A DNA stretch of 64,000 nt, taken from Methanomicrobium antiquum (GTDB lineage: Archaea; Halobacteriota; Methanomicrobia; Methanomicrobiales; Methanomicrobiaceae). Where the stretch lies: the NCBI RefSeq assembly GCF_029633915.1, contig NZ_CP091092.1, positions 1,922,001 to 1,986,000 of the forward strand, read 5' to 3'. Below the pieces are notes generated by a model that saw only the letters and a list, made by a program, of their open reading frames with translations, was not told where the DNA came from and ran no database searches. The translations under genes and the position numbers were made by a program. Below are positions 1,979 to 53,834 of this stretch, piece by piece. How positions within the stretch are numbered: position 1 is the stretch's first letter; every line of letters starts with the position of its first letter.

Positions 1979-4441
1979 ATGAACAGTGAAAATACATCTG
2001 ATAAAAATTTTGGAGATAAAAAAGAGATAAATCTTAAAGTTTCAGGAATGCACTGTGCAATGTGTGCGGCAGGACTAGAGGCAACACTAAAAAAAGCCAG
2101 AGGAATTTATTCCGCTTCTGTTGACATTGCATCAGAACGTGCAGATATTTTTTACAACGAAGATGAAACTGACATAAGAGATATTGAAAAATTAATCAAT
2201 TCTGCAGGATACGGGATTATAAAATCTGAAATAAAAATAAAAATTTCCGGAATGCACTGTGCTGTCTGTGCAGAAAAGACAAAAAATGAGCTTTTAAAAA
2301 TACCGGGCATAATATCAGCTGATATCAATCTGATTGACAATTCAGCATTCATCACATTTATCAAAGAAAATGTTAAACTTTTGGATATAAAGGCGGCAAT
2401 AGAAAAAGCCGGCTTTGAATATATGGGAACAGATGAAGAGGTTTCAACCGACTCTGAGAATCAAATATTCTTAAAAGAGCAAAAAGAAAGGATAAAAAAA
2501 ATAATAATTGGTCTTTTTATATCAGGAGTTTTAATTGCACTGATGTTTTTTGGACAATCTCTGCCCCTGAACTTCCCTGTCTCATACCTTATGTTTATCA
2601 TCACAACTCCGGTATTTCTCTATCTTGGATATCCGATATTTAAAGCCGCATTCAAGGCCCTTTTGAATCATTCTCTCACAATGGATGTTATGTATGCAAT
2701 GGGAATCGGTGTTTCATACCTTTCATCTGTCTTTGGAACATTTGGGATAATCCTTACAAATGATTTCATGTTTTACGAAACATCGGTGATGCTCGCTACA
2801 TTTTTAACCCTGGGCCGTTTCCTTGAGGCAAAGGCAAAGGGAAAAACAAACGATGCCGTAAAAAAATTAATTGAACTTCGTCCAAAGACAGCATTTGTTA
2901 AAAGAAACGGCGAATTTGTTGAGGTCTCAGCAGATGAACTTTTGACAGACGAAGAAATTATGGTAAAGCCCGGAGGACGAGTGCCTGTTGACGGGCTTGT
3001 GATCTCAGGCGAAGGTTACATTGACGAATCTGCAATAACAGGCGAATCGCTCCCTGTTAGAAAATCAAAAGGAGACAGTGTAGTTGGAGGGACACTAAAC
3101 ACAGCAGACTCATTTGTATTCAGGTCAACAAAAGTCGGTCGTGAAACTGTCATATCTCAGATTATAAGACTTGTTGAGGAGACACAGCGGCAAAAACCGC
3201 CGGTGCAAAGACTTGCTGACACTGCTGTTTCATGGTTTATACCGGTAATACTTGCAATTGCATTAATTGCATCTTTTTCATGGTATTTTATCCTTGGAAG
3301 CAGTAGTCTTTTTGCACTTACTGTCTTTATCTCAATAATTGTAGTTGCATGCCCGTGTGCACTCGGACTTGCAACGCCAACAGCAGTTACAGTTGGAATT
3401 GGACGCGGAGCAGGCCTTGGAATTTTAATAAAGAACGGTGAGTCCCTTGAAGTTTCAAAAAAACTAAAGTGCATAATTTTTGACAAGACTGGAACTTTAA
3501 CAGTTGGAAAACCGTTTGTGACCTCTGTTAAATCATATAAAACCTCCCATGATGAACTCTTAGCAATTGCGTCAGGTGTTGAGATATCATCTGAACATCC
3601 AATAGCAAAGGCGATTGTCAAAAAAGCAGAAGATGAAGGCATAAAACCATTGCCTCTTTTAAGCTTTAAGTCGTTTGCAGGCGGAGGTGTTTCTGCTGAA
3701 TATGAGGGTAAAAAAGTTCTCATAGGAAATCAGGATTTTATTTTAAAAAGCGGTCTATTAATACCTGATAACATAAAAGATGAGCTTTCAGATTCCCAAA
3801 ACTCAGGAGAAACTGCGGTTTTGGTTGCTCTTGATAGTGAAATAACAGGAATTATATCTATTTCAGATGTTTTAAAGAGAAGTGCTCCTGTTTGTGTTGA
3901 AGAGATTAAAAAAATGGGGCTTTCTGTTGCGATGGTAACAGGAGATAACGAAAAAACTGCCAGGCATATTGCACAAAAAGCAGGAATAAGCGATGTCTAT
4001 GCAGGCGTTCTCCCGGATAAAAAAGCAGAGATTGTCAAAAGGATTCAGCAAACAACCGGCCCCTGTTCATTTGTCGGTGACGGAATAAATGATGCACCGG
4101 CGCTTGCAAAATCCGATGTAGGTATAGCCGTTGGAAGCGGAACGGAGATTGCCATTGAAAGTGCAGATATTGTTCTTATGCATGACAATCTTCTGGATGT
4201 ACCGGCGGCAGTTCAGCTTTCAAAAAAGGTAATGGGCAGAATCAGGTTAAACCTGTTCTGGGCGTTTGCATACAACACTGCACTTGTTCCAATAGCCGCA
4301 GGAATTTTGTACCCGGGATTTGGAATTATATTCAGACCGGAATATGCAGGTTTTGCAATGATTTTGAGTTCAGTAACGGTAATATCTCTCTCACTGCTTC
4401 TAAAAACGTACACTCCACCGGCAATATCGAAAGAAAGCTGA
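1979..4441 (+). CDS. copA: Copper-translocating P1B-type ATPase with two N-terminal metal-binding domains
   Basis: 820 residues. Two heavy-metal-associated domains open the protein, with GMHCAMC (Cys26, Cys29) and GMHCAVC (Cys94, Cys97). Membrane helices follow, then the actuator motif TGESLPV, the transport motif CPC (458-460) within ACPCALGLATP, the phosphorylated Asp502 in DKTGT, the HP dipeptide in SSEHPIAKA and the hinge GDGINDAPAL. CPC together with HMA domains defines Cu(I)/Ag(I) exporters, which pump metal out of the cytoplasm. The gene stands alone; its long upstream region holds a palindrome array that may be its control region. ATG at 1979 lies 10 bases after AAGGGATG, a weak ribosome site. 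Confidence 0.95.
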   Translation: MNSENTSDKNFGDKKEINLKVSGMHCAMCAAGLEATLKKARGIYSASVDIASERADIFYNEDETDIRDIEKLINSAGYGIIKSEIKIKISGMHCAVCAEKTKNELLKIPGIISADINLIDNSAFITFIKENVKLLDIKAAIEKAGFEYMGTDEEVSTDSENQIFLKEQKERIKKIIIGLFISGVLIALMFFGQSLPLNFPVSYLMFIITTPVFLYLGYPIFKAAFKALLNHSLTMDVMYAMGIGVSYLSSVFGTFGIILTNDFMFYETSVMLATFLTLGRFLEAKAKGKTNDAVKKLIELRPKTAFVKRNGEFVEVSADELLTDEEIMVKPGGRVPVDGLVISGEGYIDESAITGESLPVRKSKGDSVVGGTLNTADSFVFRSTKVGRETVISQIIRLVEETQRQKPPVQRLADTAVSWFIPVILAIALIASFSWYFILGSSSLFALTVFISIIVVACPCALGLATPTAVTVGIGRGAGLGILIKNGESLEVSKKLKCIIFDKTGTLTVGKPFVTSVKSYKTSHDELLAIASGVEISSEHPIAKAIVKKAEDEGIKPLPLLSFKSFAGGGVSAEYEGKKVLIGNQDFILKSGLLIPDNIKDELSDSQNSGETAVLVALDSEITGIISISDVLKRSAPVCVEEIKKMGLSVAMVTGDNEKTARHIAQKAGISDVYAGVLPDKKAEIVKRIQQTTGPCSFVGDGINDAPALAKSDVGIAVGSGTEIAIESADIVLMHDNLLDVPAAVQLSKKVMGRIRLNLFWAFAYNTALVPIAAGILYPGFGIIFRPEYAGFAMILSSVTVISLSLLLKTYTPPAISKES

Positions 4442-4471
4442 TTTTTTTAAATTTAAAAAATCTTTTTTTTT
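4440..4471 (+). terminator. Palindrome plus T-tract after copA
   Basis: Directly at the copA stop codon an A/T-rich near-palindrome (4440-4462, GAT...ATC arms) runs into nine consecutive T. A T-rich stretch at a gene end is the usual archaeal termination signal. It lies between convergent genes (copA and the response regulator). Confidence 0.5.
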
Positions 4472-4565
4472 CACAGGTTGTTAATGACTTTAAAAAACGT
4501 TCATGAAACTAATTTTTGATGCTCTGTTTTATGAAAATCATGATTTGAATTTATATGGTAAATGA

Positions 4566-4946
4566 TTATTCCAAATCTAAAATATCTGATATCTCTTTCA
4601 TCAGATCTTTCATTTCATATGGTTTTCTAAGAAAAACAGAATTTTCAATAAGTCCGGCTCTTTTCATAGTGCTCTCCTCAGTGCTTGCAGAAGAAAAAAT
4701 AACCGGCGTATTTACTCCTTTTGCCCTTATCCTCTCACATGCATCGATGCCGTCACCCTCTCCAATCAGTCTTATATCCATTATTATCAGATCAGGACTG
4801 TTTTCAAATGTCTCCCGGAAGGCATCTTTGCATGTGGCAACAGGCCCTATGCTTTCAAAAGACATAATCTCGGTGACTACCGTTTTTATGAAATGACCTA
4901 TTAAATCATCATCTTCTACAATTAAAATTACAGGCTTTTTAATCAT
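4566..4946 (-). CDS. Receiver-only response regulator
   Basis: 126 residues consisting of a single CheY-like receiver domain: acidic pocket EDDD (11-14), phosphoacceptor Asp57 in LIIMDIRL, the conserved Ser/Thr in FSSAST, and the Lys in LRKPYE. There is no output domain, as is common in archaea. Its start overlaps the stop of the upstream histidine kinase gene (4943-4946), so the two are translationally coupled and very likely a cognate pair. The downstream target is unknown. Confidence 0.88.
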   Translation of the reverse strand: MIKKPVILIVEDDDLIGHFIKTVVTEIMSFESIGPVATCKDAFRETFENSPDLIIMDIRLIGEGDGIDACERIRAKGVNTPVIFSSASTEESTMKRAGLIENSVFLRKPYEMKDLMKEISDILDLE

Positions 4947-6061
4947 ATATTATCAATACTGTCTCCATTCTCTTGTTTTCCTTTAATAAATTCAGTTTTT
5001 ATTGTAATTATCCATGACGTTCCTCTCTCCATATCAGTGCTCTCAAGAGTTCCGGATATTTGTTTTGTTATTATATCACGAGCGTTTCTAAGTCCAAAGC
5101 CTGTTTCTCCGATGCATCTTTGCTTTTTCATTCCAACTCCGTCATCACAGACTTTAATGATTACTTCTTTTTTGTCCTCTTTTAAGCTGATTTCTATATT
5201 TCCGCCGGTTTCATCAAATGCATGATCAACTGAATTTTTTAAGAGTTCATACATTGCTGTGCTCAAAAGAACTGCATTTGAAAGTTTTGCCTCAATTTCG
5301 TCACCTGATATTTTTATAGATATTTTTTCTCTTTTTTCCTGTTTCAACCCGTCAAGGATTAATTTTGCAAGAGATTCGAAATTCTCTTTTAAAAGAAGAG
5401 TTGCCTTATCCTCTTTATTATAAAGGTCATCATGAATAATTCCAAGATATTTTATCCTGTTTGTAGCTTCGTTTATTACATCAAGGGCAATTTCATCTTT
5501 GATTCTGAGAGATTTTATTCCAAGCAGGCTTATTATATACTGAAGGTTGTTTTTTACCCGATGGTGAAGTTCGCCTATTAATTCAGATTTTTTATCAAGA
5601 ACCCTGCTGAGTTCGAGGTTTTTCTCTTCTAAGCTCTCAACACTTCCCTGTATTTTATCAAGAAGAATATTTGCGGAGCGGATGATAGATGATATTTCAT
5701 CGTCACCTTCTTCTCTTAGCCTTACATTATAATTTTCGTTTTCGGCAATTTTTTCAAGCTCATATGAAAAAAATTCCAGACGTCTTGTGATTATTGATTC
5801 CAGGAAATAGCTGATGATGATTACTACTACGATGCAGGTTATTATTGCAAATATAAAATTAAGGAGAAGAGACCCAAAGCCAAGCCTGAATAGTTCTCTT
5901 TCATTTGTTACTTTTATGTATCCGGCAATTTCATCCTCAATACTGTAAACAGGAGATATAAGAGATATTTCATCATCGCCTTCACTGTAAACTATTAAGG
6001 GTTCAGAAAACTCAGATGGCAGATTCAGCTTTTCATATGAATCTAAATCCAAAAATCCCAT
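4943..6061 (-). CDS. Sensor histidine kinase, C-terminal part (HisKA_2/HATPase); 5' part lies in another frame
   Basis: 372 residues: the remaining extracellular sensor segment, a transmembrane helix (about 75-100), a HAMP-like linker, a coiled coil, the phosphoacceptor box GELHHRVKNNLQYI of the HisKA_2/LytS-like class, and an HATPase domain with N-box ELLKNSVDHAF and G-box CDDGVGM and GFGLRNA. The apparent ATG at 6061 is internal: the CHASE4 sensor domain belonging to the same protein is encoded just upstream in a different frame (6070-6666). One missing base near 6071-6075, in an A-rich run, would join them into a normal kinase of about 570 residues. It is probably the partner of the receiver gene that overlaps its 3' end. 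Confidence 0.85.
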   Translation of the reverse strand: MGFLDLDSYEKLNLPSEFSEPLIVYSEGDDEISLISPVYSIEDEIAGYIKVTNERELFRLGFGSLLLNFIFAIITCIVVVIIISYFLESIITRRLEFFSYELEKIAENENYNVRLREEGDDEISSIIRSANILLDKIQGSVESLEEKNLELSRVLDKKSELIGELHHRVKNNLQYIISLLGIKSLRIKDEIALDVINEATNRIKYLGIIHDDLYNKEDKATLLLKENFESLAKLILDGLKQEKREKISIKISGDEIEAKLSNAVLLSTAMYELLKNSVDHAFDETGGNIEISLKEDKKEVIIKVCDDGVGMKKQRCIGETGFGLRNARDIITKQISGTLESTDMERGTSWIITIKTEFIKGKQENGDSIDNI

Positions 6062-6069
6062 CTTCTGAT

Positions 6070-6666
6070 TTATTTCCTTTGAAATTCCTGCAAATAATCA
6101 CCGGACAGCTTTTTTGCCATCACGAATACCCCATTGACAGGACCATCAAGATTGCTCTTCAGGAGAGGATTTATTGTAACAATGTAGATATCTCCGTCTG
6201 CATCAATTATTCCGGCCCTGTTGCTGTAAAAAGAGGGTGTTTTAACATAATTGCTTTCTTTAACTTTTTTTATGAAATTTCCGGGAATTTCTGTAAATTT
6301 ATTTTCTTCAAAATCATAGTATCTCCCATAAAAAAATTCACCTTTTTTGTCAAAATAAAGTATTGCATCCAATTCAAGATTTGTAAATGTTGATTCAGGA
6401 AGATTCTCCTCAATATAGTAAGAATCCATATCATCCATAAAATAATATGAGGAATCCCAGTATGACCAGTCGCGATTTAGCTGATTTACAGAGGATATTT
6501 TATAATAGAGATAGTTCTCTGCCGCCAAAGAGTCTTTTTCTAATTCATGCTGTTCTATTTTTTCGAGATTTTCAATTCCAAAGAAGAAAAGTCCGAACAA
6601 AAAACCGGCAAGGAGCAGAGCAACCGTTAGTATAATCAGCAGATTTACTTTTCTTTTAATTCTCAA
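6070..6666 (-). CDS. CHASE4 extracellular sensor domain (5' part of the broken histidine kinase)
   Basis: 198 residues: a membrane helix at about 8-30 (LLIILTVALLLAGFLFGLFF) followed by a CHASE4 domain, with the typical YWDSSYYFMDD motif and the ending GPVNGVFVMAKKLS. CHASE4 is an extracytoplasmic ligand-sensing domain of prokaryotic kinases. The frame stops at 6070 just where family members continue into the second membrane helix, which here is in the next open frame. It is therefore best read as the N-terminus of the following kinase, interrupted by a -1 shift in the A-rich stretch near 6071-6075. The ligand is unknown. Confidence 0.75.
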   Translation of the reverse strand: MRIKRKVNLLIILTVALLLAGFLFGLFFFGIENLEKIEQHELEKDSLAAENYLYYKISSVNQLNRDWSYWDSSYYFMDDMDSYYIEENLPESTFTNLELDAILYFDKKGEFFYGRYYDFEENKFTEIPGNFIKKVKESNYVKTPSFYSNRAGIIDADGDIYIVTINPLLKSNLDGPVNGVFVMAKKLSGDYLQEFQRK

Positions 6667-7150
6667 ATTGAAAACCTCTCCCCCTTTTAAAATACAGGTT
6701 TTTATTCACTCAAATATCTGCTATATCCTGAAAAGGCAGATACAGACCACATATAAGCCAAAAAATATGGCATCCTAATATTTTTAAGCATTGCATATTG
6801 TGTCCTACTTTCTATTAATAATTAATCAATCTCTCATTCATATTTATTTGAAAAGCAGGGTTTAATATGAAATATTTTTTTCAGTGATAACTTAAAAATA
6901 ACTTAATTCTAAAAATAACCTAATTTTAAAATAACATAATCCTTAGGATTATTTTAACACATTTGTTTAATCTGACTTTATTTTTAGATTTTTTTGTTAT
7001 AATTATCTTAGCACCTTTTTTAATTTGGTACATTTTTACATTTTTTAACTGGAAAAAGATAATATTTGGATATTTTATCTGTTCTGAAATTTACCAGCCC
7101 TGAGATTTTTAGTCAATTCTGCTCTTTATAAATTCTTTTAGTAGTCAATA
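6667..7150. other. A+T-rich intergenic region with degenerate short repeats
   Basis: 484 bases without a supported gene, between the CHASE4 kinase start and the HTH regulator 3' end. Around 6888-6945 there are three to four degenerate 16-17-base units beginning AACTTAAT, AACCTAAT and AACATAAT, each followed by an A-rich run. The 11-mer AGTCAATTCTG occurs at 7111 and again at 7156. No hairpin or known RNA is evident. Confidence 0.4.
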
Positions 7151-7642
7151 TTAGTAGTCAATTCTGTTTTTAAGAGAGAAAAGAGCATCAGTTATTGTCT
7201 TCGTATCAGGCTTTATTATTGCAACAGGAACATCTACTACCTTTTCAATCATAGAGGCAAGTATTGGTGCACAAACAATCCCGCAGGCTCCTTCTTTTTC
7301 TGCACGGACGCCGGATACAATGCACTCTTCCATCGTATATGCCGGAAATCCTTTTATCCGGTAGGTTTTTTTGCCGATATCAATCTTTTTGGACTCAACT
7401 TCGTCAAGCAAGAATTTAGCGGCGATAACTGCAATAAACCCCGATTCATGAGGCTCAAGAGTGTTTACGATAGCCTGAACCGTTGAGAAACGCGGATCTC
7501 TTTCGCCTGATGTTATCTTATATATAGTTGCGGCAGGAATGCCGGCATTGTCTGCAAGCTCTTTTATACTCACTCCCTTTCGAAAAAGCTCTTCTTCAAG
7601 AGCGATTTTAAAGCCAACTTCAAAAATTCTCTTAGAGAACAT
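7151..7642 (-). CDS. HTH transcriptional regulator of a methanogen-type family
   Basis: 163 residues. The N-terminus is an XRE-like helix-turn-helix (VSIKELADNAGIPAATIYKITSGERDP, about 24-50). The C-terminal half, MEECIVSGVRAEKEGACGIVCAPILASMIEKVVDVPVAIIKPD, resembles a small ligand-binding alpha/beta fold. Proteins of this layout are found in methanogens; I know of no assigned function. The gene is divergent from the coenzyme M/methanogenesis cluster, with 269 bases between them, so it is a candidate regulator of that cluster or of itself. This is inferred from position only. Confidence 0.75.
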   Translation of the reverse strand: MFSKRIFEVGFKIALEEELFRKGVSIKELADNAGIPAATIYKITSGERDPRFSTVQAIVNTLEPHESGFIAVIAAKFLLDEVESKKIDIGKKTYRIKGFPAYTMEECIVSGVRAEKEGACGIVCAPILASMIEKVVDVPVAIIKPDTKTITDALFSLKNRIDY

Positions 7643-25641: not shown

Positions 25642-26271
25642 TTAATTATCCAAACCTTCAGAATTATCTGCATGGGCAAGATAGTCCTGTACTGCAGGCA
25701 GTGGCTCACCTTCAATCCTTACATCGCCTGTCCTGTATTCAAAATGATATACTTCTCCATCACTATTTGAATACGAGGCGCTGTCAACGATATACTCCTC
25801 ACCGAATGCCCGAATTGATGCCACAACCGAATGCTCGCCTGCCGTCAGAACTATTTCACTTTCAGGAAAGCCGTCAAGGTATCCGGTGTAGGAATAAATG
25901 CCTGAAACCTCCCGCGGTGTTTTTATTGTAAAACCTTTAAGAACCATCAGATACGGTTTTCCTTCAATTTTAACAGACAAATTATCCCCTGCAAACAGCT
26001 GTTTTCTGATCTTTTCTATATCAAGGATCACGAGATCGCAGTTTTCAATGGTGCTCTGTATATTGAGTTCAGTTCCATTTTTATGCGATTTTACAAGCGT
26101 CGTTGCACCTGTAAAATCAACAAGAGGAACTTCTGATTCACCCTCTCCCGATAAAAAACAACAGGATTGCATTGATTCACCACAAAAATATACCACACAT
26201 CCGATTATAACTAAAAATATAAGCGCCAGAAAAATTCCAGTCACAACTGGTTTTTTATCAGTCCATTTCAT
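25642..26271 (-). CDS. Membrane-anchored stand-alone metalloprotease propeptide-like protein
   Basis: 209 residues from ATG 26271, whose ATGA overlaps the stop of the FxxYP gene; a longer frame from 26310 is unlikely. One membrane helix (about 9-30) is followed by a domain that aligns along its length with the propeptide of the protease at 41713-43047. Both have CDLV/YDLV-x-xDI...IR, V-x-IEGK-x-Y-x-x-x-L, a Y-x-GYL-x-G turn, IVLT, GEEY-x-xDS and IEG followed by DYLAH. There is no protease domain. By analogy with reprolysin propeptides, which keep the enzyme latent, it may inhibit or chaperone a protease in trans (inference). Confidence 0.7.
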   Translation of the reverse strand: MKWTDKKPVVTGIFLALIFLVIIGCVVYFCGESMQSCCFLSGEGESEVPLVDFTGATTLVKSHKNGTELNIQSTIENCDLVILDIEKIRKQLFAGDNLSVKIEGKPYLMVLKGFTIKTPREVSGIYSYTGYLDGFPESEIVLTAGEHSVVASIRAFGEEYIVDSASYSNSDGEVYHFEYRTGDVRIEGEPLPAVQDYLAHADNSEGLDN

Positions 26272-37162: not shown

Positions 37163-37879
37163 TCACCAGATTGTAACTTTTTTCATTGTCAGGAAATCGT
37201 TGTCTCCAATCCTGATTGAACCACTACCTGTCTGATCAATAACTGGTCTTCCAGTGAGACCTATAACACTAAACCCTTCATATCCAAGTTTTGCATAGCA
37301 GACATTTTCCGGAAGCATTATTGACTGTAAGAATCCTGTGGATGTAGACCTGACATTGGTTCCTGAGGGTATTGATACTGAAATCCCTATTCCTCCTGCA
37401 TTAACGCCTGTTCCAACCTGTAGATTCTGGAATGTATAACCCGGTGCCGGCTCAAATGTTACTGTAGTATATCCATTTGATCTGATTTCTAATGGATATA
37501 GAATCGGTTTTTCTCCGTGAATATATGTTTTTACTGTCAAATTACCTCTTTCTGAGCAGTAAGTAGTAATTTCTCCGGTTGCTTCAGGATAAAATAAACC
37601 TCTCTTTTCGTCTGCTTTTTTTGTGTATTCTTCAAGAAGTTTTAATTCGTCTTCTACTAACGGACCGGTAATTCCAAAGGAATTTTCGTTAAATATTATT
37701 GCTCTGTCTCTTAATTCAGGAGGAATTTGATCTTCCGGTTCAGCAGCGATTTCTCTGACTGATTGACTATAAACCTTTGACTGATAATTATATTCGTTAA
37801 CTATTGATGCAAATAACACACATGCAATAATCAACAACATAAGCAGGCAAAAAACCCGTATGCCTTTTTTGATTTTCAT
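37163..37879 (-). CDS. Secreted protein of unknown function sharing the accessory leader
   Basis: 238 residues from ATG 37879 (AGAGGTG upstream; GTG 37888 is an alternative). Its N-terminus MKIKKGIRVFCLLMLLIIACVLF and the DNA before it match the leader cassette of the metalloprotease genes, although the mature part is different. The middle is beta-rich (YTTVTFEPAPGYTFQNLQVG, GIGISVSIPSGTNVRS). No enzyme motif is seen. It is the last gene of the run of protease relic, FxxYP gene and membrane-protein gene. Confidence 0.55.
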   Translation of the reverse strand: MKIKKGIRVFCLLMLLIIACVLFASIVNEYNYQSKVYSQSVREIAAEPEDQIPPELRDRAIIFNENSFGITGPLVEDELKLLEEYTKKADEKRGLFYPEATGEITTYCSERGNLTVKTYIHGEKPILYPLEIRSNGYTTVTFEPAPGYTFQNLQVGTGVNAGGIGISVSIPSGTNVRSTSTGFLQSIMLPENVCYAKLGYEGFSVIGLTGRPVIDQTGSGSIRIGDNDFLTMKKVTIW

Positions 37880-37911
37880 TATTTTCACCTCTTTTCGTTT
37901 TTAACAACCAG

Positions 37912-37924
37912 CATTCAAACTTTA
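37912..37924 (-). promoter_or_regulatory. Leader motif CATTCAAACTTTA (reads TAAAGTTTGAATG on the gene strand)
   Basis: A 13-base motif 33 bases upstream of the start of the secreted protein gene. Matching sites with one variable base lie at about the same distance upstream of both metalloproteases and the 47064-47927 secreted protein, and further upstream of the 45185-45886 gene. It is always followed by GTTAAAACGAAAAGAGG-like sequence in the leader cassettes. Confidence 0.45.
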
Positions 37925-37962
37925 ATTTGTAATAATAATCTCACATTTCATTCATTTTATCA

Positions 37963-38369: not shown

Positions 38370-38780
38370 CTATGACTGGCCTATAGGAATCTGGTAATAG
38401 GTGCCGTTCCAGAAAACATATCTGCCAATAAAAATGTTTTCTCCAGTGCTGTTAATTTTTATAACGGGGCCATATAGATTTCTGAAATCCTCTATCTGCT
38501 CATATTCAAATTTTTTAAATTCAACTGAGCCTCCCTGGGGAGTGTTTACAAGTTGATTTAGAACAGGGTATTGCTCAAAATCTGATTCAGTTAAATATAA
38601 AATTACTGCTTTTGTGTCTAAATCTGCTTTCTCAACTGGAAACGCACTGGCAAAATAGCTTAAATCCGGTTCAAATATCGCCGTATAAACTAAAACTGCA
38701 CAGTATGATGTCAGCGACAATACTACCACAGCCAGAATAAACAAAACGACTATTTTTACTGATTTAATTGCATCTTTCAT
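38370..38780 (-). CDS. FxxYP-family membrane-anchored protein, paralog 2
   Basis: 136 residues: membrane helix about 10-35, then an extracytoplasmic domain with LTESDFEQYPVLNQLVNTP, FRNLYGPVIKI and the C-terminal YVFWNGTYYQIPIG, the family framework shared with the genes at 26268, 39017 and 41226. It starts 20 bases after the stop of a metalloprotease C-terminal relic (38801-38971), so it keeps the protease-then-FxxYP order although its protease is lost. Confidence 0.62.
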   Translation of the reverse strand: MKDAIKSVKIVVLFILAVVVLSLTSYCAVLVYTAIFEPDLSYFASAFPVEKADLDTKAVILYLTESDFEQYPVLNQLVNTPQGGSVEFKKFEYEQIEDFRNLYGPVIKINSTGENIFIGRYVFWNGTYYQIPIGQS

Positions 38781-38800
38781 GGTTCTTTAAAAAAATGGAT

Positions 38801-38971
38801 TTAATTATATCTATAGCCCGCAACCGTGCTTTTTGCATCTTTAATAGCCAATGCATTATCATGTGTGGCATCTCCATGGTAATTTGGTGATGAATATTCC
38901 CACAGATTAAAATTGGTTCCATAATAACCACTTTGCATAACGCTATATTTGGGGATTATCTCTATTTCGCA
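38801..38971 (-). pseudogene. C-terminal relic of a third secreted metalloprotease
   Basis: Reading from 38971 to the TAA at 38801-38803 gives EIEIIPKYSVMQSGYYG..., then LWEYSSPNYHGDATHDNALAI, ending VAGYRYN. It aligns with the end of the protease at 39509-40894 (TTVMYSMYLGSG, then WEYSSPSYHGNSDCNNAGAI). Catalytic zinc site, propeptide and signal are absent; an in-frame TGA lies just upstream at 38972-38974 and there is no start codon. It is too short for a usual gene call but clearly recognisable, and it is the remnant partner of the following FxxYP gene. Confidence 0.75.
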
Positions 38972-39016: not shown

Positions 39017-39421
39017 TTATGGCTGCGCAATCAATATTCCGTAATATCCTCCCTTCCAGTATATTGTCCCGGGGCCAAATTCTTTTTGTATTTCCTCCGC
39101 TTTATCCTGACTTAGACTTATTTGATTAACAAATATCGTTTTTTCGCCGTTGAATTCGTCTTCACCGGTTGGAGTTACATTATAAAAAAGCTCTCTCAAT
39201 TCCGGATATTTGATGAATTTTTCTTCTGATAAACTAATTAATGTCCTGTTTTCAACATCCACCAGATTGCTGTTTATCTCAATTAAGTCCACCTGATATG
39301 AATCAGGAAAGATGAAACCCAAAATCAGGGCAGGTATTACAAGTAATGAATTCGTGTAGATCAAAACCGCAATTATAGCAATAATGATAATTCCAATAAT
39401 AATTTTAGTTCGTTTTTCCAT
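39017..39421 (-). CDS. FxxYP-family membrane-anchored protein, paralog 3
   Basis: 134 residues. The N-terminal hydrophobic region (about 7-40, probably one or two helices) is followed by LSEEKFIKYPELRELFYNV, KEFGPGTIYWKGGYYGILIA, the same framework as the other FxxYP proteins. The gene follows the metalloprotease at 39509-40894 on the same strand with an 87-base gap. Function is unknown; the fixed position after a protease gene is the only clue. Confidence 0.62.
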   Translation of the reverse strand: MEKRTKIIIGIIIIAIIAVLIYTNSLLVIPALILGFIFPDSYQVDLIEINSNLVDVENRTLISLSEEKFIKYPELRELFYNVTPTGEDEFNGEKTIFVNQISLSQDKAEEIQKEFGPGTIYWKGGYYGILIAQP

Positions 39422-39508: not shown

Positions 39509-40894
39509 CTAAACAAGACCTGCTATATTTTGCTTGACTGCGTTAATGGCTCCTGCATTATTACAATCTGAATTGCCATGGTAACTTGGTGATGAATATT
39601 CCCAGGTTGTAATGCCACTTCCCAGATACATACTATACATGACAGTGGTCTTGAGACCAGGAGTAAACCATGTATATGCCTGATTAGGAACACCTGTGCC
39701 TTCGTGATTAGCGTCGAAGATATGTCCTATTTCATGGATAATACAATACAATCTCGCATGATATGATCCATCATAAAAGATATCGATGGCATTGGAATCG
39801 GCTACCATCTGTGACCATGCATAACGGCAATAATCATGCCATTCTGGATGTTCGGGGTTATCATAACAGCTATATCCCCATGAAGAGCCTTGTACTCCTG
39901 CATCATTTCCACTTCTATCATTTCCTCCAAGGTATATCGCAATATCTGCATTCTTACCATCAAGGTAATTTGGTGAAAATGTGTCTTTGAATAATCCTAA
40001 GGGGTCAGTAAATTTTCTGCTACTTGATGATAGAGTGTCTTTTTTTGATGAATCATACTTGGCAATATACAGGGACACACCTATATCCGACCTTTGGTAT
40101 TGATATGCTGCCTGAGCCATGTAACTTTGTGCAGCAGATACCCAATTTGATCCAAGACCATAAAATTCATTATCTGTCGCAACTAGAACATATACTGATT
40201 TCCAGCTTTTAGTTGAGTCTGAGGCGATCATCTGATCGCCAGATACTTTTGTGGGAAGATTCATAATCTTTTGTTTGTTCATATCAATCAAAGATTCATC
40301 AGGCTGCTCCATATCTTTTGAGGAATAAACAATATGAAGAGGCATTACAGTTTTCATTGTATATTCCCTGTTCTGAACTGGTTCTATGAATATAATTTCA
40401 TCTTTAAGCTGAATTGATCCATAAATCAGAGATTTGTCCATACTTTCATCAAATGTAAACAATGCTATGGAATCATCCAGTCCTTTTACGTATCCTGAAT
40501 ATGAATCAATTCCATCGTCAATATCTTCAAAATTCATTTTTTCAAGGATCAGATCATATTCTTTGCCATATATTGAAACTTTTAAAGAATTGGTTTTGTC
40601 TGTTTTAACATCTGCTTTGCTGAACTGAACAATATCGTATTTAAGAACAGTAGAAGGAATGTTCAATTTTCCATATTTATTTTCGAGAATGTCCGTACTC
40701 TTACTTTCAGGATCAACTTGTGTTTTTAAATCAGTTGTATTTCCAATAATCTCAAAAATAGCTTCTGAAGAATTCTGTAATAACAAATCTGAATTTTTCT
40801 CTTCCGCAGCACTAACCGCCGGAACAAACATCGCTCCTAATAGTGCCATTACCAATAGCAGGCAAAAAGCCTGCATACTTTTGTTTAATTTCAT
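39509..40894 (-). CDS. Secreted zymogenic metalloprotease (reprolysin/M12B-like metzincin), copy A
   Basis: 461 residues from ATG 40894, with the ribosome site GAGGTG upstream; the frame is open to 40930, but that is leader sequence. A signal peptide (FCLLLVMALLGAMFVPAVSA) precedes a propeptide of about 180 residues with YDIVQF, L-x-VSIYGKEYDLIL, YSGYVKGLDDSIALFTF, like reprolysin prodomains. The catalytic domain has the zinc motif HEIGHIFDANH (about residue 387), with Asp at the usual metzincin Gly position, and a Met-turn-like TTVMYS. It probably cleaves proteins outside the cell; the substrate is unknown. An FxxYP gene follows. Confidence 0.82.
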   Translation of the reverse strand: MKLNKSMQAFCLLLVMALLGAMFVPAVSAAEEKNSDLLLQNSSEAIFEIIGNTTDLKTQVDPESKSTDILENKYGKLNIPSTVLKYDIVQFSKADVKTDKTNSLKVSIYGKEYDLILEKMNFEDIDDGIDSYSGYVKGLDDSIALFTFDESMDKSLIYGSIQLKDEIIFIEPVQNREYTMKTVMPLHIVYSSKDMEQPDESLIDMNKQKIMNLPTKVSGDQMIASDSTKSWKSVYVLVATDNEFYGLGSNWVSAAQSYMAQAAYQYQRSDIGVSLYIAKYDSSKKDTLSSSSRKFTDPLGLFKDTFSPNYLDGKNADIAIYLGGNDRSGNDAGVQGSSWGYSCYDNPEHPEWHDYCRYAWSQMVADSNAIDIFYDGSYHARLYCIIHEIGHIFDANHEGTGVPNQAYTWFTPGLKTTVMYSMYLGSGITTWEYSSPSYHGNSDCNNAGAINAVKQNIAGLV

Positions 40895-40927
40895 TTTTTC
40901 ACCTCTTTTCGTTTTAACAAAAGCAGG

Positions 40928-40940
40928 CATACAAACTTTA
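40928..40940 (-). promoter_or_regulatory. Leader motif CATACAAACTTTA upstream of protease A
   Basis: The same 13-base site as at 37912, 43078 and 47958, here 33 bases upstream of the protease A start, embedded in AGCAGGCATACAAACTTTAG. Farther upstream the sequence diverges from the duplicated cassettes, so conservation is restricted to this proximal leader. Confidence 0.45.
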
Positions 40941-41225
40941 GTCTGCGAGAATGCTTCTAAGATAAAATGCCGGTTGTATCAATCGGTGGATAAATCACAG
41001 GAAAATAAGGGAAAAGGATTGGTTAAGTCAGTCCCTTCTTTTTTCTGAAATTTCACTTGATTCTTTTTTGGGACAAACCTTTAGGGCTGTCCACACTGAT
41101 GGTTTTGTAATGAGGTTATAAGTTTTTTATGTGTCAAAATTCGTCACGTTTAATTTAATCAGATTATGAATAATTTCCTTTTTTGTAATTAGAAAAAAAT
41201 TGAAAATCCTGTATTCTTATCCAAA

Positions 41226-41720
41226 CTAATTTTTAAAGCCATCAATAACGTAATTATGTCCCTTGTATCTGAAAGTGACTCCGTAAAAATTCTCAAAAAA
41301 TATTCTTTCTTCATCACCTGTCAGAGATTTTGTTGTCATATACTTTGGCTCCAGAATTTCTTTGATAAAAGGATAATCCTCAAAAGTTTTATCTGTGACA
41401 TTAATTTCTTCATATCCCTGGCTGACAAGCTCCTCAATAGTGCTGTTTGGCGGATACATCCATACAGTGCTTTCACTTACATTTATCAGCTCCATGTGAT
41501 AACCATGGAATGCCGGAGTAGATTCTGTAGTTTGTATAACAGCTGTCGTTTTTTCAGGATTGGATGTATTGATAATTTCACTTTCAGACTCATTACTGGC
41601 GTTTAAATCAGAAATAAACATAAAAACAGCTGCAATAATTATAACTGCCATAATTATAGCAGGTATTAGTTGATTTTTTTTCAGAATATCAAAAAAAAGT
41701 GAAATAATTTTTTTAGACAT
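41226..41720 (-). CDS. FxxYP-family membrane-anchored protein, divergent paralog 4
   Basis: 164 residues: membrane helix about 16-35, a Ser/Thr/Glu-rich linker (ASNESESEIINTSNPEKTTAV), then a domain with VTDKTFEDYPFIKEILEP, FYGVTFRYKGHNYVIDGF, the family framework in a longer and more divergent form. Its start overlaps the stop of the protease B gene by eight bases, so it is translationally coupled to that protease. This is the strongest direct link in the window between a protease and an FxxYP protein. Confidence 0.65.
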   Translation of the reverse strand: MSKKIISLFFDILKKNQLIPAIIMAVIIIAAVFMFISDLNASNESESEIINTSNPEKTTAVIQTTESTPAFHGYHMELINVSESTVWMYPPNSTIEELVSQGYEEINVTDKTFEDYPFIKEILEPKYMTTKSLTGDEERIFFENFYGVTFRYKGHNYVIDGFKN

Positions 41721-43047
41721 AATAATCTCTTACAACATTTCTGGTATTATATATTCTCAGCGCATTGTTATGGTAATAATCCCCATTGTAATCATTTGAT
41801 GAATATTCATAACTTGTACTTCTTAAAATTGGTGCCCATACAACAGACTGTGTTGTTGAGCCTGAGTTCCACTGGTATGCCCTGTTATAATTTTCCTGAA
41901 TTTGACCTGGCTTTAGGTATTGATGATCAGCATCAAACAGGTGTCCTATTTCGTGCAGAGTTGCAACAGTCCTGTCATGAATATTTGGATCATAAGGAGA
42001 AGGATCATCAGCCATCTGTACCCATGCGTATCTCCTCTTTCCAGCATTACTGTCATCATATCCATAGGTTGCCCCTACGCCCCAATCTGGATTTGTACAG
42101 TCATAGCCACCAAGATATACTGCAATATCTGCAGATTTTGAGTTCAGATAATTTACATCCACATGGCCTCTGAAGGTATCTAATGGATTTTGTACAAGAT
42201 TCTGGGCATCAGCAGCAAGTTCACTTGCTTTAGATGAATCATATGTGGCAATTAGATTTAATTGAATATCAGATCTTCCAAACTGGTTATTGGCCTGAGC
42301 AATTATAAGCTGAGCTTTAGATTGCCAGTCTGGCTCATCATAAATCCATTTGGCATCTGTCATAACAAGTATTCTTACATAAGTAATACTTTTTGTAGCC
42401 TTTTCTTTTTCCTCAATTTTAGCCTCTTCACTTCTAATTTTCAACTCATCATTAGACATTGTGGAATGTGCGAGATAATCTTCAATACCATAAAGGTAAT
42501 TTCCCTCGATTTTGATATCTTTTACCATATATTCAATGTGATACTTATCTCCGGATGGATCTTTTGCAGATAAACTATCAATGCAATATTCTTCTCCATT
42601 TATAATTATACTTGCAAGAAATACAGATTCACTTATAGTAAGAACAATATTACTATTATCAACACCTTTGAGATAACCATTGTATGAATGTGTTTCAGGA
42701 TTCACTCCTTTATCATTAACAAGTAATTCATTCAATATCATTGAATATTGCTTACCTTCAATACAAACTGGTAATTCCCCTTTTTTAAAAATTTCATTTC
42801 TAATTTCAGGAATATCAAATGATACCAGATCATATTTCTCAATAGTATTGTCAATTTTTAAATCTGATTTTATTTGATTAGCATCTATCTGCTTTGTATA
42901 TCCTTCAAAAATAATCAAAGGAGTTGATAAATATTCTTTGTCGTTCTCTTCCGCAGCACTAACCGCCGGAACAAACATCGCTCCTAATAGTGCCATTACC
43001 AATAGCAGGCTCAAAATCAAAACCCGCATGCCTTTTTTCATTTTCAT
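41713..43047 (-). CDS. Secreted zymogenic metalloprotease (metzincin-like), copy B
   Basis: 444 residues from ATG 43047 (GAGGT upstream; the longer frame to 43098 reads through leader DNA). Signal peptide MKKGMRVLILSLLLVMALLG...VSA, then a propeptide with YDLVSFDI, CIEGKQYSMIL, YNGYLKGVDNSNIVLTI, GEEYCIDS and IEDYLAH, then a catalytic domain with TLHEIGHLFDADH (about 365). The position of the Met-turn methionine of copy A is a Ser here (TTQSVVWAP), so this zinc site is atypical. The C-terminus EYSSNDYNGDYYHNNAL matches copy A and the relic at 38801. It is coupled to an FxxYP gene. Confidence 0.8.
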   Translation of the reverse strand: MKMKKGMRVLILSLLLVMALLGAMFVPAVSAAEENDKEYLSTPLIIFEGYTKQIDANQIKSDLKIDNTIEKYDLVSFDIPEIRNEIFKKGELPVCIEGKQYSMILNELLVNDKGVNPETHSYNGYLKGVDNSNIVLTISESVFLASIIINGEEYCIDSLSAKDPSGDKYHIEYMVKDIKIEGNYLYGIEDYLAHSTMSNDELKIRSEEAKIEEKEKATKSITYVRILVMTDAKWIYDEPDWQSKAQLIIAQANNQFGRSDIQLNLIATYDSSKASELAADAQNLVQNPLDTFRGHVDVNYLNSKSADIAVYLGGYDCTNPDWGVGATYGYDDSNAGKRRYAWVQMADDPSPYDPNIHDRTVATLHEIGHLFDADHQYLKPGQIQENYNRAYQWNSGSTTQSVVWAPILRSTSYEYSSNDYNGDYYHNNALRIYNTRNVVRDYYV

Positions 43048-43351
43048 TTTTTTACCTCTTTTCGTTTTAACAGCAGGCATACAAACTTTAGTCTGCAATA
43101 ATGCAGAAGGACCGGAACTGAATGTCCTGCTGGTTTTTTTACCAGTGTAAAATTTTTGTAAAAGAGAAAAAAAGATTAATTTGTGAAATCAGGTATCTCT
43201 CCTTCCCCTCGGAAAATTTCACTGGACTGGTTCTTAAGCAAATTAAAAAAGGGTTTAATCAAAGGATTATGCCTTTGGAATTTTCCCCCCGAACTAATTT
43301 TTGCCTAAGGAGTTATACCTGCTCTGACAGAATCATCGAATAACCAAAACC
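42955..43351. repeat. Leader plus signal-peptide cassette, copy 1 (of protease B)
   Basis: This 397-base block is nearly identical to 47841-48231: I count only a few substitutions and one six-base difference inside the signal peptide. It covers the signal-peptide codons, the ribosome site, the CATACAAACTTTA motif (43078-43090) and about 300 bases further upstream. The two copies drive unrelated mature proteins. Confidence 0.85.
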
Positions 43352-46576: not shown

Positions 46577-47077
46577 TTACCCCAACAGTAATTCATAAAG
46601 AGTTTGGATATTGATTACTATATATAAAAGCGATCCCAATATTAATATTGTTCCTGCTATTATGCAGTCATACCTTTTAAAGTAACTATATGATCCAATT
46701 ATTCCCAGACAAAAGCCAAAAATCAATCCTCCATAGATATACACTCTGAATGGACGATCAAAGGTTAATGTATACCATATTCCATCAAATATTGGACATA
46801 ATAATCCACAGATAAGCAATGGTATGAGAATTGATTGTAGAGGATTTTTGTTTTTCCCAAACATTAGAATTATAATTGCAGGAAAAATAAGTCCAAAAAT
46901 TAAATAAGTTACTGAAAAAAACATTGGATCCATGCCAATATTGAAAAAATAATCAAATGAAAGGACAATTCTTATCATTAATATGGATAGTAGTAATGCC
47001 ATTCCAAGCGAAAAATCTAGTAAAAAAGGATATTTTTTTATTTGATTCATAGTAATCAGGTACCTAGGACATTTCAA
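46577..47077 (-). CDS. Polytopic membrane protein of unknown function
   Basis: 166 residues with four to five membrane helices (about 14-36, 45-70, 75-95, 105-125, 138-160). The frame from 47077 overlaps the end of the secreted protein gene by 14 bases; an internal ATG at 47050 gives MNQIKKYPFLLDF and is an alternative. No family recognised. It probably works with the adjacent 191-residue membrane protein. Confidence 0.55.
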   Translation of the reverse strand: MKCPRYLITMNQIKKYPFLLDFSLGMALLLSILMIRIVLSFDYFFNIGMDPMFFSVTYLIFGLIFPAIIILMFGKNKNPLQSILIPLLICGLLCPIFDGIWYTLTFDRPFRVYIYGGLIFGFCLGIIGSYSYFKRYDCIIAGTILILGSLLYIVINIQTLYELLLG

Positions 47078-47927
47078 TTGTTATTCCATATCCATCATGG
47101 GTGTTGTACCATGGGCTTCCCGATTCTCTATTTTGGAGATTTACATAATAATCATCTGCTACATTTAGGTTTTGTGAAGTAAATGATTGAATATAATGTC
47201 TGCCGTCATTACACCCATCTTCGGGAACTACATGGGATAAAGGTAGTCTGAATTCATCAATATGGCAATTACCATAAGTCCAGTCTCCTTCAACGGGATC
47301 AGTAAATCCATCAAATAATACAAGATGGTACCTTAAAAATAAAGGATTGCCAGCTTCTAATTGGTCTCCAATAATACCACCACCATGTGAATCACGCCAT
47401 ACTAATTGACTTGTAGAAGGGCCACATAATCCATATTCAGTAAATCCTAAAGCTCCAACCCAATCTCCTGTATTTTTAAGGTCAGAAGTGATTTGTGTTC
47501 TATCTGTATTAAGAAAGATAACATTTACGGGTCCGGAATTTGGTGATGTAAGAGTGTCTCTGTTTCCATAAGGCCAGAAATAAATATTACTTGTTAAATG
47601 TGTAATTTGAGTGGAAACTTTTGCATCTCTGTTTTTTTCCAGCTCTGATGATATCTTTTTATATTCATCGGAAAAGAATTTTTCGGCTTCAGCTTTCCCA
47701 AACTTTTCGCTTAGATACTTGTAATATTTGGAATTTTCCAAACAGAAATCATTATAATTATCATATTGACTTTTTTGAATGATTGAGGAATATGTCCATT
47801 GTGCTTCCCTAATTTCTTTCTTTCCGTCATTGAAGATTTCCGCACTAACCGCCGGAACAAACATCGCTCCTAATAGTGCCATTACCAATAGCAGGCTCAA
47901 AGCCCGCATGCCTTTTTTCATTTTCAT
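47064..47927 (-). CDS. Secreted protein of unknown function with the protease-type signal peptide
   Basis: 287 residues from ATG 47927. The first about 33 residues (MKMKKGMRALSLLLVMALLG...VSA) are nearly identical to those of protease B, but the mature protein is unrelated. It has a helical segment (YSSIIQKSQYDNYNDFCLE, KYYKYLSEKFGKAEAEKFF) followed by a beta-rich domain with NVIFLNTDRTQITSDLKNTG, WRDSHGGGIIGDQLEAG and FLRYHLVLFDGF. No known catalytic motif was recognised. It starts a unit with two membrane proteins and uses the duplicated leader cassette. Confidence 0.62.
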   Translation of the reverse strand: MKMKKGMRALSLLLVMALLGAMFVPAVSAEIFNDGKKEIREAQWTYSSIIQKSQYDNYNDFCLENSKYYKYLSEKFGKAEAEKFFSDEYKKISSELEKNRDAKVSTQITHLTSNIYFWPYGNRDTLTSPNSGPVNVIFLNTDRTQITSDLKNTGDWVGALGFTEYGLCGPSTSQLVWRDSHGGGIIGDQLEAGNPLFLRYHLVLFDGFTDPVEGDWTYGNCHIDEFRLPLSHVVPEDGCNDGRHYIQSFTSQNLNVADDYYVNLQNRESGSPWYNTHDGYGITIEMS

Positions 47928-48231
47928 TTTTTTACCTCTTTTCGTTTTAACAGCAGGCATACAAACTTTAGTCTGCAATAATGCAGAAGAACCGGAACTG
48001 AATGCCCTGCTGGTTTTTTTACCAGTGCAAAATTTTTGTAAAAGAGAAAAAAAGATTAATTTGTGAAATCAGGTATCTCTCCTTCCCCTCGGAAAATTTC
48101 ACTGGACTGGTTCTTAAGCAAATTAAAAAAGGGTTTAATCAAAGGATTATGCCTTTGGAATTTTCCCCCCGAACTAATTTTTGCCTAAGGAGTTATACCT
48201 GCTCTGACAGAATCATCGAATAACCAAAACC
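47841..48231. repeat. Leader plus signal-peptide cassette, copy 2
   Basis: 391 bases matching 42955-43351. The identity ends at 48231, which is precisely the loop end of the hairpin at 48203-48252; copy 1 lacks the right arm. It includes CATACAAACTTTA at 47958-47970 and the ribosome site. Confidence 0.85.
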
Positions 48232-53159: not shown

Positions 53160-53834
53160 TTATTCCCCCGGCAACGGCAGCATGTAGTCATGATTTATAT
53201 CATCTGACGAGTATATTGCATACAAAAGACGGGGTGATTTCATTGCAGACTCTGTTGCCTGAACGGGAATTATATATATACCAAAGCCATCACGATATTC
53301 AGACTGGAAATTGACATCAATCATGAAATAACTAAGACCTTCACCTGTGAGACTCCTTGCCTGAGCAATTATCACTCCACCATCTCCATAATTCCTGCTG
53401 TCTTCAATTTTGTGGAAATAATAATCAATATTGTTATTGGTCTCATCCCGGGGTTCAGGCAGGTAATAAGTTAAATTAATACTGTATTTTGTGTCATTAA
53501 TCCGCATCAGAAGAGTTGTGCTGTTGTCCTGTTTAAGCCCGAAATCATCGAACTCAACAAGATCACAGACCATAACATCGGCAGGTATATAGATCTCCCC
53601 GTATTTTTCCGTGATGTAATCAGGAACAGGCAGAGAAGTATTGTATCTTGCCTCAATTACATTGTTATAACCGATTATATCGCAGACAATGTCAGAATTA
53701 TTATGGTTTCCCTGCCCGAAAGCCGGTTTACTGCCATCCGATATTGTATCTCCTATAAAAAAAACTGCGAAAGCAACGATTACAATAACTGTCAATAAAA
53801 GACCTGATACCAAAATAATATTTTTTGACTCCAT
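53160..53834 (-). CDS. Second stand-alone metalloprotease propeptide-like protein, membrane-anchored
   Basis: 224 residues: membrane helix about 7-28, then a domain that aligns with the propeptide of protease A: YITEKYGEIYIPADVMVCDLVEF against ILENKYGKLNIPSTVLKYDIVQF-type sequence, followed by L-x-MRINDTKYSINL, and near the end LLYAIYSSDDIN against LHIVYSSKDME. There is no catalytic domain. The similarity is closer to protease A, whereas the 25642-26271 protein is closer to protease B. It may act as a trans inhibitor or folding aid; this is an inference. Confidence 0.6.
   Translation of the reverse strand: MESKNIILVSGLLLTVIVIVAFAVFFIGDTISDGSKPAFGQGNHNNSDIVCDIIGYNNVIEARYNTSLPVPDYITEKYGEIYIPADVMVCDLVEFDDFGLKQDNSTTLLMRINDTKYSINLTYYLPEPRDETNNNIDYYFHKIEDSRNYGDGGVIIAQARSLTGEGLSYFMIDVNFQSEYRDGFGIYIIPVQATESAMKSPRLLYAIYSSDDINHDYMLPLPGE

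What the first reader, a model, noticed from the sequence alone, without database searches (positions are those of the whole stretch)
25642..26271. Stand-alone protease propeptide, translationally coupled to an FxxYP protein
The membrane-anchored protein consists only of the propeptide domain found in protease B, with conserved blocks IEGK-x-Y, GYL-x-G, IVLT, GEEY-x-xDS and DYLAH. Its ATGA start overlaps the stop of an FxxYP gene. In reprolysins the prodomain inhibits the catalytic domain; a free prodomain in the membrane would be a natural trans inhibitor. It also ties the FxxYP family to the propeptide independently of the protease domain.
Basis: partly seen in the sequence, partly recalled or inferred. 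Interest (0 to 1): 0.62.

Follow-up and report, generated by a model that had tools for sequence, protein, structure and literature searches.

The report
Free membrane-anchored ADAM-type protease prodomain (archaea)
A methanogenic archaeon encodes, as a separate membrane-anchored protein, just the 'safety-catch' part of a secreted protease that is related to the human ADAM17 prodomain, coupled to a small partner protein that in related archaea is fused to it; this suggests a dedicated cell-surface inhibitor of the archaeon's own secreted proteases.

Summary
Window 25642-26271 (-) encodes a 209-aa protein: one N-terminal membrane helix, then a domain 42% identical over 154 gap-free residues to the propeptide of protease B. 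There is no catalytic remnant nearby. It overlaps the upstream FxxYP ('F') gene by ATGA, and the overlap is conserved in a 77%-identical ortholog pair under purifying selection (dN/dS 0.17). The domain family is homologous to the ADAM17 prodomain by sequence profile (E 6e-7; all five ADAM17 entries rank first in the PDB). Predicted protease B superposes on the ADAM17 zymogen (Z 25, 312 residues). The protein keeps a short C-terminal tail with an Asp at the spacing of ADAM17's zinc-binding Cys184. F genes lie within 200 bp downstream of 26 of 33 distinct proteases; in about three lineages F is fused directly to a free propeptide. Natural stand-alone prodomains exist (CpaB, SUB1-ProM), so this is a new variant of a known kind. 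Most likely role: tethered trans-inhibitor that protects the producer (about 0.5); a CpaB-like chaperone is the main rival. Inhibition itself is untested.

The parts
25642..26271 (-). P0001: stand-alone membrane-anchored ADAM-type prodomain, 209 aa
   Evidence: propeptide profile match 25660-26133, E 8e-51 (this sequence is itself a row of that profile)
26191..26247 (-). hydrophobic membrane anchor, residues 9-27 (VVTGIFLALIFLVIIGCVV)
   Evidence: Kyte-Doolittle mean 3.09, no second segment
25672..25686 (-). DYLAH tail motif; Asp196 lies 13 residues after the conserved Asp of the Y..xD motif, the same spacing as Cys184 in ADAM17
   Evidence: tail dN/dS 0.03 between genera, 15 codons
26268..26651 (-). 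P0003: FxxYP (F) protein, 127 aa, one TM helix, overlaps P0001 by ATGA
41713..43098 (-). P0004: protease B, signal peptide + prodomain (42451-42924) + reprolysin-like catalytic domain (41722-42411, HEIGHLFDADH)
41226..41720 (-). P0008: FxxYP protein of protease B, overlaps its 3' end by 8 bp
39509..40930 (-). P0002: protease A, prodomain (40283-40735) + catalytic domain (39518-40222, HEIGHIFDANH)
39017..39421 (-). P0007: FxxYP protein of protease A
38810..38953 (-). C-terminal remnant (last ~47 residues) of a further protease catalytic domain, 5'-truncated
38370..38780 (-). P0006: intact FxxYP protein directly downstream of that remnant
53160..53834 (-). P0005: second stand-alone membrane-anchored prodomain, 224 aa, related to protease A's; no F neighbour
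   Evidence: 25% over 172 aa to protease A, E 4e-10; propeptide profile E 6e-14; dN/dS 0.24 vs G025 ortholog, with dS near saturation

Best explanation
The protein is a free ADAM-type prodomain held on the outer face of the membrane by one helix. It most likely binds in trans the catalytic domain of the archaeon's own secreted ADAM/reprolysin-like proteases, B-type first. The beta-barrel would dock on the enzyme and the short C-terminal tail (VQDYLAH) would lie in the active-site cleft, its Asp facing the zinc where ADAM17 uses Cys184. This would keep enzyme that has lost its own prodomain inactive at the producer's surface. The co-translated FxxYP protein, also membrane-anchored, would hold or strengthen the complex; in relatives both are fused into one protein. 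Shown: free conserved domain, ADAM17-prodomain homology of the family, coupling to F, fusions. Inferred: binding, inhibition, Asp-zinc contact, and the part played by F.
For: 42% identity over the whole protease B propeptide. The family profile matches the ADAM17 propeptide at E 5.7e-7, the next unrelated PDB chain at 0.033; a profile of stand-alone and fusion members only still gives ADAM17 first, E 8e-4. The protease B model fits the ADAM17 zymogen: Foldseek E 1e-10, Z 25.1 over 312 residues in both domains. Conserved switch-like tail: Asp in most proteases, Cys followed by Gly in Methanocorpusculum proteases at the same place; Asp kept in P0001 and its ortholog. Purifying selection and conserved ATGA coupling. 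F/P linkage: 26 of 33 proteases have F or P-F within 200 bp downstream; 5 of 5 strong F genes of this genome lie beside a prodomain gene or protease remnant; P-F fusions. A cluster protease-F-free prodomain exists in a congener, G013. Precedent: the ADAM17 prodomain expressed in trans stays bound and inhibits, and the membrane protein iRhom2 retains it (PMC11248996); stand-alone SUB1-ProM is a potent inhibitor (PMC6993865).
Against: No binding or inhibition data. P0001 is 13 kb from the nearest protease gene, and its G025 ortholog lies far from G025's proteases: about 50 kb from one and 1.76 Mb from the main cluster. Twelve genomes of 98% or more completeness have free prodomains or fusions but no match to the catalytic-domain profile, so some members may have no cognate enzyme. 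Most P-F fusions replace the Asp tail. P0001 alone finds no PDB relative.
Confidence: 0.5

Rival explanations
1. CpaB-like dedicated chaperone: the free prodomain folds the protease and escorts it to export, holding it inactive at the membrane until release; inhibition is a by-product.
For: Best structural match of the P-F fusion model is 6o38 chain H, deposited as a chaperone-substrate complex (CpaA is 6O38): Z 10.3, 108 of 118 residues. CpaB has one N-terminal TM helix, lies next to its protease CpaA, is needed for secretion, and its C-terminal tail blocks the active site (PMC4713064, PMC7542363). In G139 and G013 a free prodomain gene follows the protease gene, directly or after F.
Against: The archaeal proteases carry their own cis prodomain, so a trans chaperone is not obviously needed; free prodomains occur in genomes without a detected client. 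No sequence match to CpaB was found.
Confidence: 0.2
2. Immunity against proteases secreted by other strains: free prodomains, P-F fusions and F proteins protect the cell surface from non-self enzymes, so they persist after the cell's own protease is lost.
For: Free prodomains or fusions without a detected protease in 12 near-complete genomes; intact F genes directly downstream of protease fragments that in every case hold the extreme C-terminus; tandem F arrays; leader/promoter cassettes up to 97% identical at DNA level before different secreted proteins.
Against: The same fragments can arise by tandem duplication and 5' deletion with selection on F alone; the catalytic C-termini are not strikingly variable; no target or toxicity is known.
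Confidence: 0.15
3. Repurposed barrel: the domain lost protease binding and serves as a surface-binding or assembly module with FxxYP.
For: Long time since the split from the proteases (stem branch 0.65); P0005 and some others lack the switch tail; some genomes lack a detected protease.
Against: In P0001 the tail is the most conserved part (14/15 identical, dN/dS 0.03), which fits retained cleft binding.
Confidence: 0.12
4. Remnant of a broken protease gene.
For: Such remnants exist in the family (frameshifted L043 3659-4390, L037 3665-4372).
Against: dN/dS 0.17, conserved start overlap, own TM anchor instead of the family signal peptide, no catalytic remnant.
Confidence: 0.03

Closest known systems
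ADAM17 (M12B) prodomain, PDB 8snm/9o54
   Same: Homologous by profile (E 5.7e-7), same predicted fold and zymogen arrangement; tail with a switch residue at the same +13 spacing; known to inhibit in trans
   Different: Asp instead of Cys at the switch in P0001; naturally a separate membrane-anchored gene product; archaeal; below the PF01562 cut-off
CpaB, membrane chaperone of CpaA (Acinetobacter, PDB 6o38)
   Same: Single N-terminal TM helix, stand-alone domain of matching predicted fold (Z 10.3 for the fusion member), partner of a secreted metzincin, C-terminal tail
   Different: The CpaB gene is adjacent to its protease gene; no detectable sequence similarity; type II secretion; the archaeal proteases have a cis prodomain of their own
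SUB1-ProM (Plasmodium) and other propeptide-like inhibitors (MEROPS I9, I29: CTLA-2alpha, crammer, BCPI)
   Same: Stand-alone propeptide that inhibits the cognate protease in trans
   Different: Serine or cysteine protease propeptides of other families; no partner like FxxYP
iRhom2 as retention factor of the ADAM17 prodomain
   Same: Membrane protein that holds a cleaved prodomain on the enzyme, the role proposed here for FxxYP
   Different: Polytopic pseudoprotease; no detected homology to FxxYP; analogy only

Membership tests
ADAM/reprolysin (M12B) prodomain | Sequence homology to a characterised ADAM prodomain | tested here: met
   Family profile A6 vs ADAM17 propeptide E 5.7e-7; non-protease members only E 8e-4. 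P0001 alone as a single query finds nothing
ADAM/reprolysin (M12B) prodomain | Match to Pfam PF01562 above its cut-off | tested here: not met
   No family member over the cut-off; best weak hits E 0.016-0.037 fall on prodomains of this family. It is therefore described as ADAM-prodomain-like, not filed under PF01562
ADAM/reprolysin (M12B) prodomain | Prodomain fold packed on a metzincin domain as in the ADAM17 zymogen | tested here: met
   Model of protease B: Z 25.1, rmsd 3.7, 312 residues; fusion member without catalytic domain: ADAM17 prodomain Z 8.1-8.6. P0001 itself was not modelled
ADAM/reprolysin (M12B) prodomain | Cysteine switch | tested here: not met
   P0001 and protease B have Asp at the corresponding place; Cys-Gly occurs in Methanocorpusculum members
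ADAM/reprolysin (M12B) prodomain | Inhibits the catalytic domain | not testable with these tools
   Needs purified proteins
M12B-like catalytic domain of proteases A and B | Reprolysin profile above cut-off; HExxHxxGxxH; Met-turn | tested here: inconclusive
   Reprolysin_5/3 above cut-off; HExxHxxxxxH present but Asp replaces Gly; Met of the presumed Met-turn present in most members (TVMW) but Val in protease B
CpaB-type membrane chaperone | N-terminal TM helix plus prodomain-like ectodomain | tested here: met
   One helix, residues 9-27; fold match Z 10.3 shown for a fusion relative, not for P0001 itself
CpaB-type membrane chaperone | Encoded next to its client protease | tested here: not met
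   P0001 lies 13 kb from protease A; adjacency is found in relatives G013 and G139
CpaB-type membrane chaperone | Required for secretion or activity of the protease | not testable with these tools
   Needs genetics

The most novel reading that the evidence does not exclude
Free ADAM-type prodomains, FxxYP proteins and their fusions are membrane immunity proteins of a secreted-protease conflict system in methanogens: the protease attacks surfaces of non-kin, the prodomain/FxxYP module protects kin, and orphan modules (C-terminal protease fragment + FxxYP, free prodomains in protease-less genomes) are kept as protection against other strains, as in polymorphic toxin systems.
Probability: 0.15. 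Interest if true: 0.82.

Novelty: new variant of a known kind. Interest (0 to 1): 0.64.

Why it matters
A 2025 cryo-EM paper stated that the ADAM17 prodomain had no homologous structure in the PDB (PMC12184519). Methanogens turn out to have both ADAM17-type zymogens and naturally free, membrane-tethered versions of that prodomain. This gives a prokaryotic system in which trans-inhibition by a prodomain, the Asp-versus-Cys switch, and membrane retention of a prodomain can be tested with small proteins. It also gives a first functional handle on the FxxYP family, which no Pfam or NCBIfam model covers, and suggests that CpaB and the ADAM prodomain may share a fold.

Tried and rejected
Pfam, NCBIfam and PDB sequence searches with P0001 or P0005 alone: no relevant hit. 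PF01562 across 60 genomes: nothing over cut-off. FxxYP: no Pfam/NCBIfam family, no credible PDB match; the matches listed are to its TM segment or look like chance; its part of the fusion model drew no fold match, but the list was filled by the prodomain, so its fold is untested. Remnant-of-a-protease reading rejected. The CpaA-CpaB structure paper itself is not in the library. No coordinates of the models are available, so zinc distances and the path of the tail could not be measured; that stretch has low confidence (block 201-210 pLDDT 52).

Full report
CHECK OF THE OBSERVATION. The window is bases 1,922,001-1,986,000 of a single-contig 2.44-Mb genome. Its relatives in named collections are Methanomicrobiales such as Methanoculleus and Methanocorpusculum. 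The ORF at 25642-26271 (-) encodes P0001, 209 aa. Its ATG overlaps the stop of the FxxYP gene P0003 (26268-26651, -) as ATGA. P0001 residues 48-201 align to the propeptide of protease B (P0004) without a gap, 42% identical, E 3e-34, and weakly to that of protease A. Searching with both catalytic domains finds nothing beside P0001. An ortholog pair in another genus of the family (G025) has the same gene order and the same ATGA overlap. P0001 is 150/190 identical with dN/dS 0.17; F has dN/dS 0.21. The gene is real, selected, and not a protease remnant. A second stand-alone prodomain of the protease A kind, P0005, lies at 53160-53834 (-), E 4e-10 to protease A.

WHAT THE DOMAIN IS. A profile of 31 such domains (A6) was searched against all PDB sequences. 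The five best hits are all ADAM17 (best E 5.7e-7, the isolated ADAM17 propeptide 8snm); the next, unrelated, is at 0.033. A profile made only of stand-alone and fused members, with no protease, still ranks ADAM17 first (E 8e-4). An AlphaFold2 model of protease B (37-sequence alignment, pLDDT 83, pTM 0.82) has zymogen ADAM17 as best Foldseek match (E 1e-10). VIA-align gives Z 25.1, rmsd 3.7, 312 residues across both domains, against about Z 17 for catalytic domains alone. A model of a prodomain-FxxYP fusion (pLDDT 89, pTM 0.58), which has no catalytic domain, again finds the ADAM17 prodomain first by Foldseek, though only at E 0.013 and probability 0.98, and at Z 8.1-8.6 by VIA-align; the top VIA-align row is chain H of 6o38, Z 10.3 over 108 of 118 residues. 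6o38 is the CpaA-CpaB complex; that chain H is CpaB is inferred from its length and the entry title. The Pfam propeptide model PF01562 is not reached above its cut-off by any member, so I call the domain ADAM-prodomain-like, not a PF01562 member.

THE SWITCH TAIL. In ADAM17 the zinc-binding Cys184 (PMC11248996, PMC12184519) lies 13 residues after Asp171 of the matched motif VYKSED. In protease B and its clade the tail GIEDYLAH puts an Asp at +13; in most other family proteases an Asp (I-D-x-G) is at +11; in Methanocorpusculum proteases the same place reads C-G. P0001 keeps the Asp at +13 in VQDYLAH, and this tail is the most conserved part between genera: 14/15 residues, dN/dS 0.03 (few codons, so the ratio is rough). 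That this Asp touches zinc, like the aspartate switch known for profragilysin (own knowledge), is inference. Most P-F fusions have a different tail and P0005 has none, so not all free prodomains need work alike.

THE FxxYP PARTNER. The family (about 95-aa ectodomain, motif IxLTxxDFxxYPxL ... YxGxYY, one TM helix) has no Pfam, NCBIfam or credible PDB relative. It is tied to this protease family. Of 33 distinct intact proteases with room downstream, 26 have an F or P-F gene within 200 bp on the same strand, including one in a Deltaproteobacteria MAG (L078). All five strong F genes of this genome lie beside a prodomain gene or a protease remnant. Of 150 listed F hits in the order, 91 lie within 5 kb of a prodomain; about 1% would be expected by chance (lists cut by the tool). 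On a tree of 65 prodomains the fusions need three changes and intact stand-alone forms six. P0001 and its ortholog form one clade (100/99), sister to B-type protease prodomains (98/88). In a congener (G013), at the corresponding locus next to serS, the order is protease, F, free prodomain.

MECHANISM. The best reading is a membrane-tethered trans-inhibitor for self-protection, with FxxYP as the membrane partner that holds the complex (0.5). The strongest precedents are: the ADAM17 prodomain expressed in trans stays bound and inhibits while iRhom2 retains it (PMC11248996); SUB1-ProM, a stand-alone propeptide next to subtilase genes, is a potent inhibitor (PMC6993865); and CpaB, a single-TM chaperone next to CpaA whose C-terminal tail blocks the active site (PMC4713064, PMC7542363). 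Against a pure chaperone role: the archaeal proteases have their own prodomain. Against a simple cognate-inhibitor role: twelve near-complete genomes have free prodomains or fusions but no catalytic-profile match. Broader protease searches were not done there, and elsewhere in the list some long frames may hide divergent enzymes. That pattern keeps an immunity reading open (0.15). Domain family and gene linkage are shown here; binding, inhibition, the zinc contact and the action of F are inferred.

NOVELTY. Free propeptide inhibitors and a free prodomain-like chaperone are known, so this is a new variant of a known kind. New, as far as I could find, are the ADAM17-type prodomain in archaea, its membrane-tethered free form, the FxxYP partner and fusions, and the Asp/Cys exchange at the switch. 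I found no paper describing any of these in the library searched; subscription journals are largely missing from it.

Noticed in passing
window 38370-38953 (-); also L123, L124, L125, L126, L127, L045: Short fragments of the protease catalytic domain that always include its extreme C-terminus (profile end 226-228); most are followed directly by an intact FxxYP gene. Looks like 5'-truncated proteases with retained F genes, or orphan toxin-tip/immunity units.
   Followed up: partly
window 42956-43250 vs 47842-48130, 40797-40954, 37842-37936: Leader and upstream region of protease B is 97% identical over 295 bp to that of an unrelated 304-aa secreted protein (47064-47978) and 86-90% to parts of two others; G025 (L037) has many copies. 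A recombining leader cassette before different secreted proteins.
   Followed up: partly
window 53160-53834 (-): Second stand-alone membrane-anchored prodomain (P0005), with an ortholog in G025 only 1.8 kb from the P0001 ortholog (L036 5858-6544).
   Followed up: yes
L030 778-2217, L072 5800-7158, L074 5815-7191, L071 6046-7377: Methanocorpusculum-group proteases carry Cys-Gly where the other archaeal proteases have Asp in the switch tail: a possible Asp-to-Cys switch exchange inside one family.
   Followed up: partly
PDB 6o38 chain H and 8snm chain A, through the model of L039:4654-5502: CpaB (chain H inferred) and the ADAM17 prodomain both match the same archaeal model, which suggests that CpaA-CpaB is a split ADAM-like zymogen; the two were not compared directly.
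   Followed up: partly
L129 (G048) 3477-7632, L071 and L072: Tandem arrays: three near-identical prodomain-like matches in G048; four to five FxxYP genes in one locus in Methanocorpusculum.
   Followed up: no
L050 6137-6913 (+): Prodomain-only protein with a signal peptide and a C-terminal hydrophobic segment, 168 bp downstream of a protease gene: same gene order as cpaA-cpaB.
   Followed up: partly
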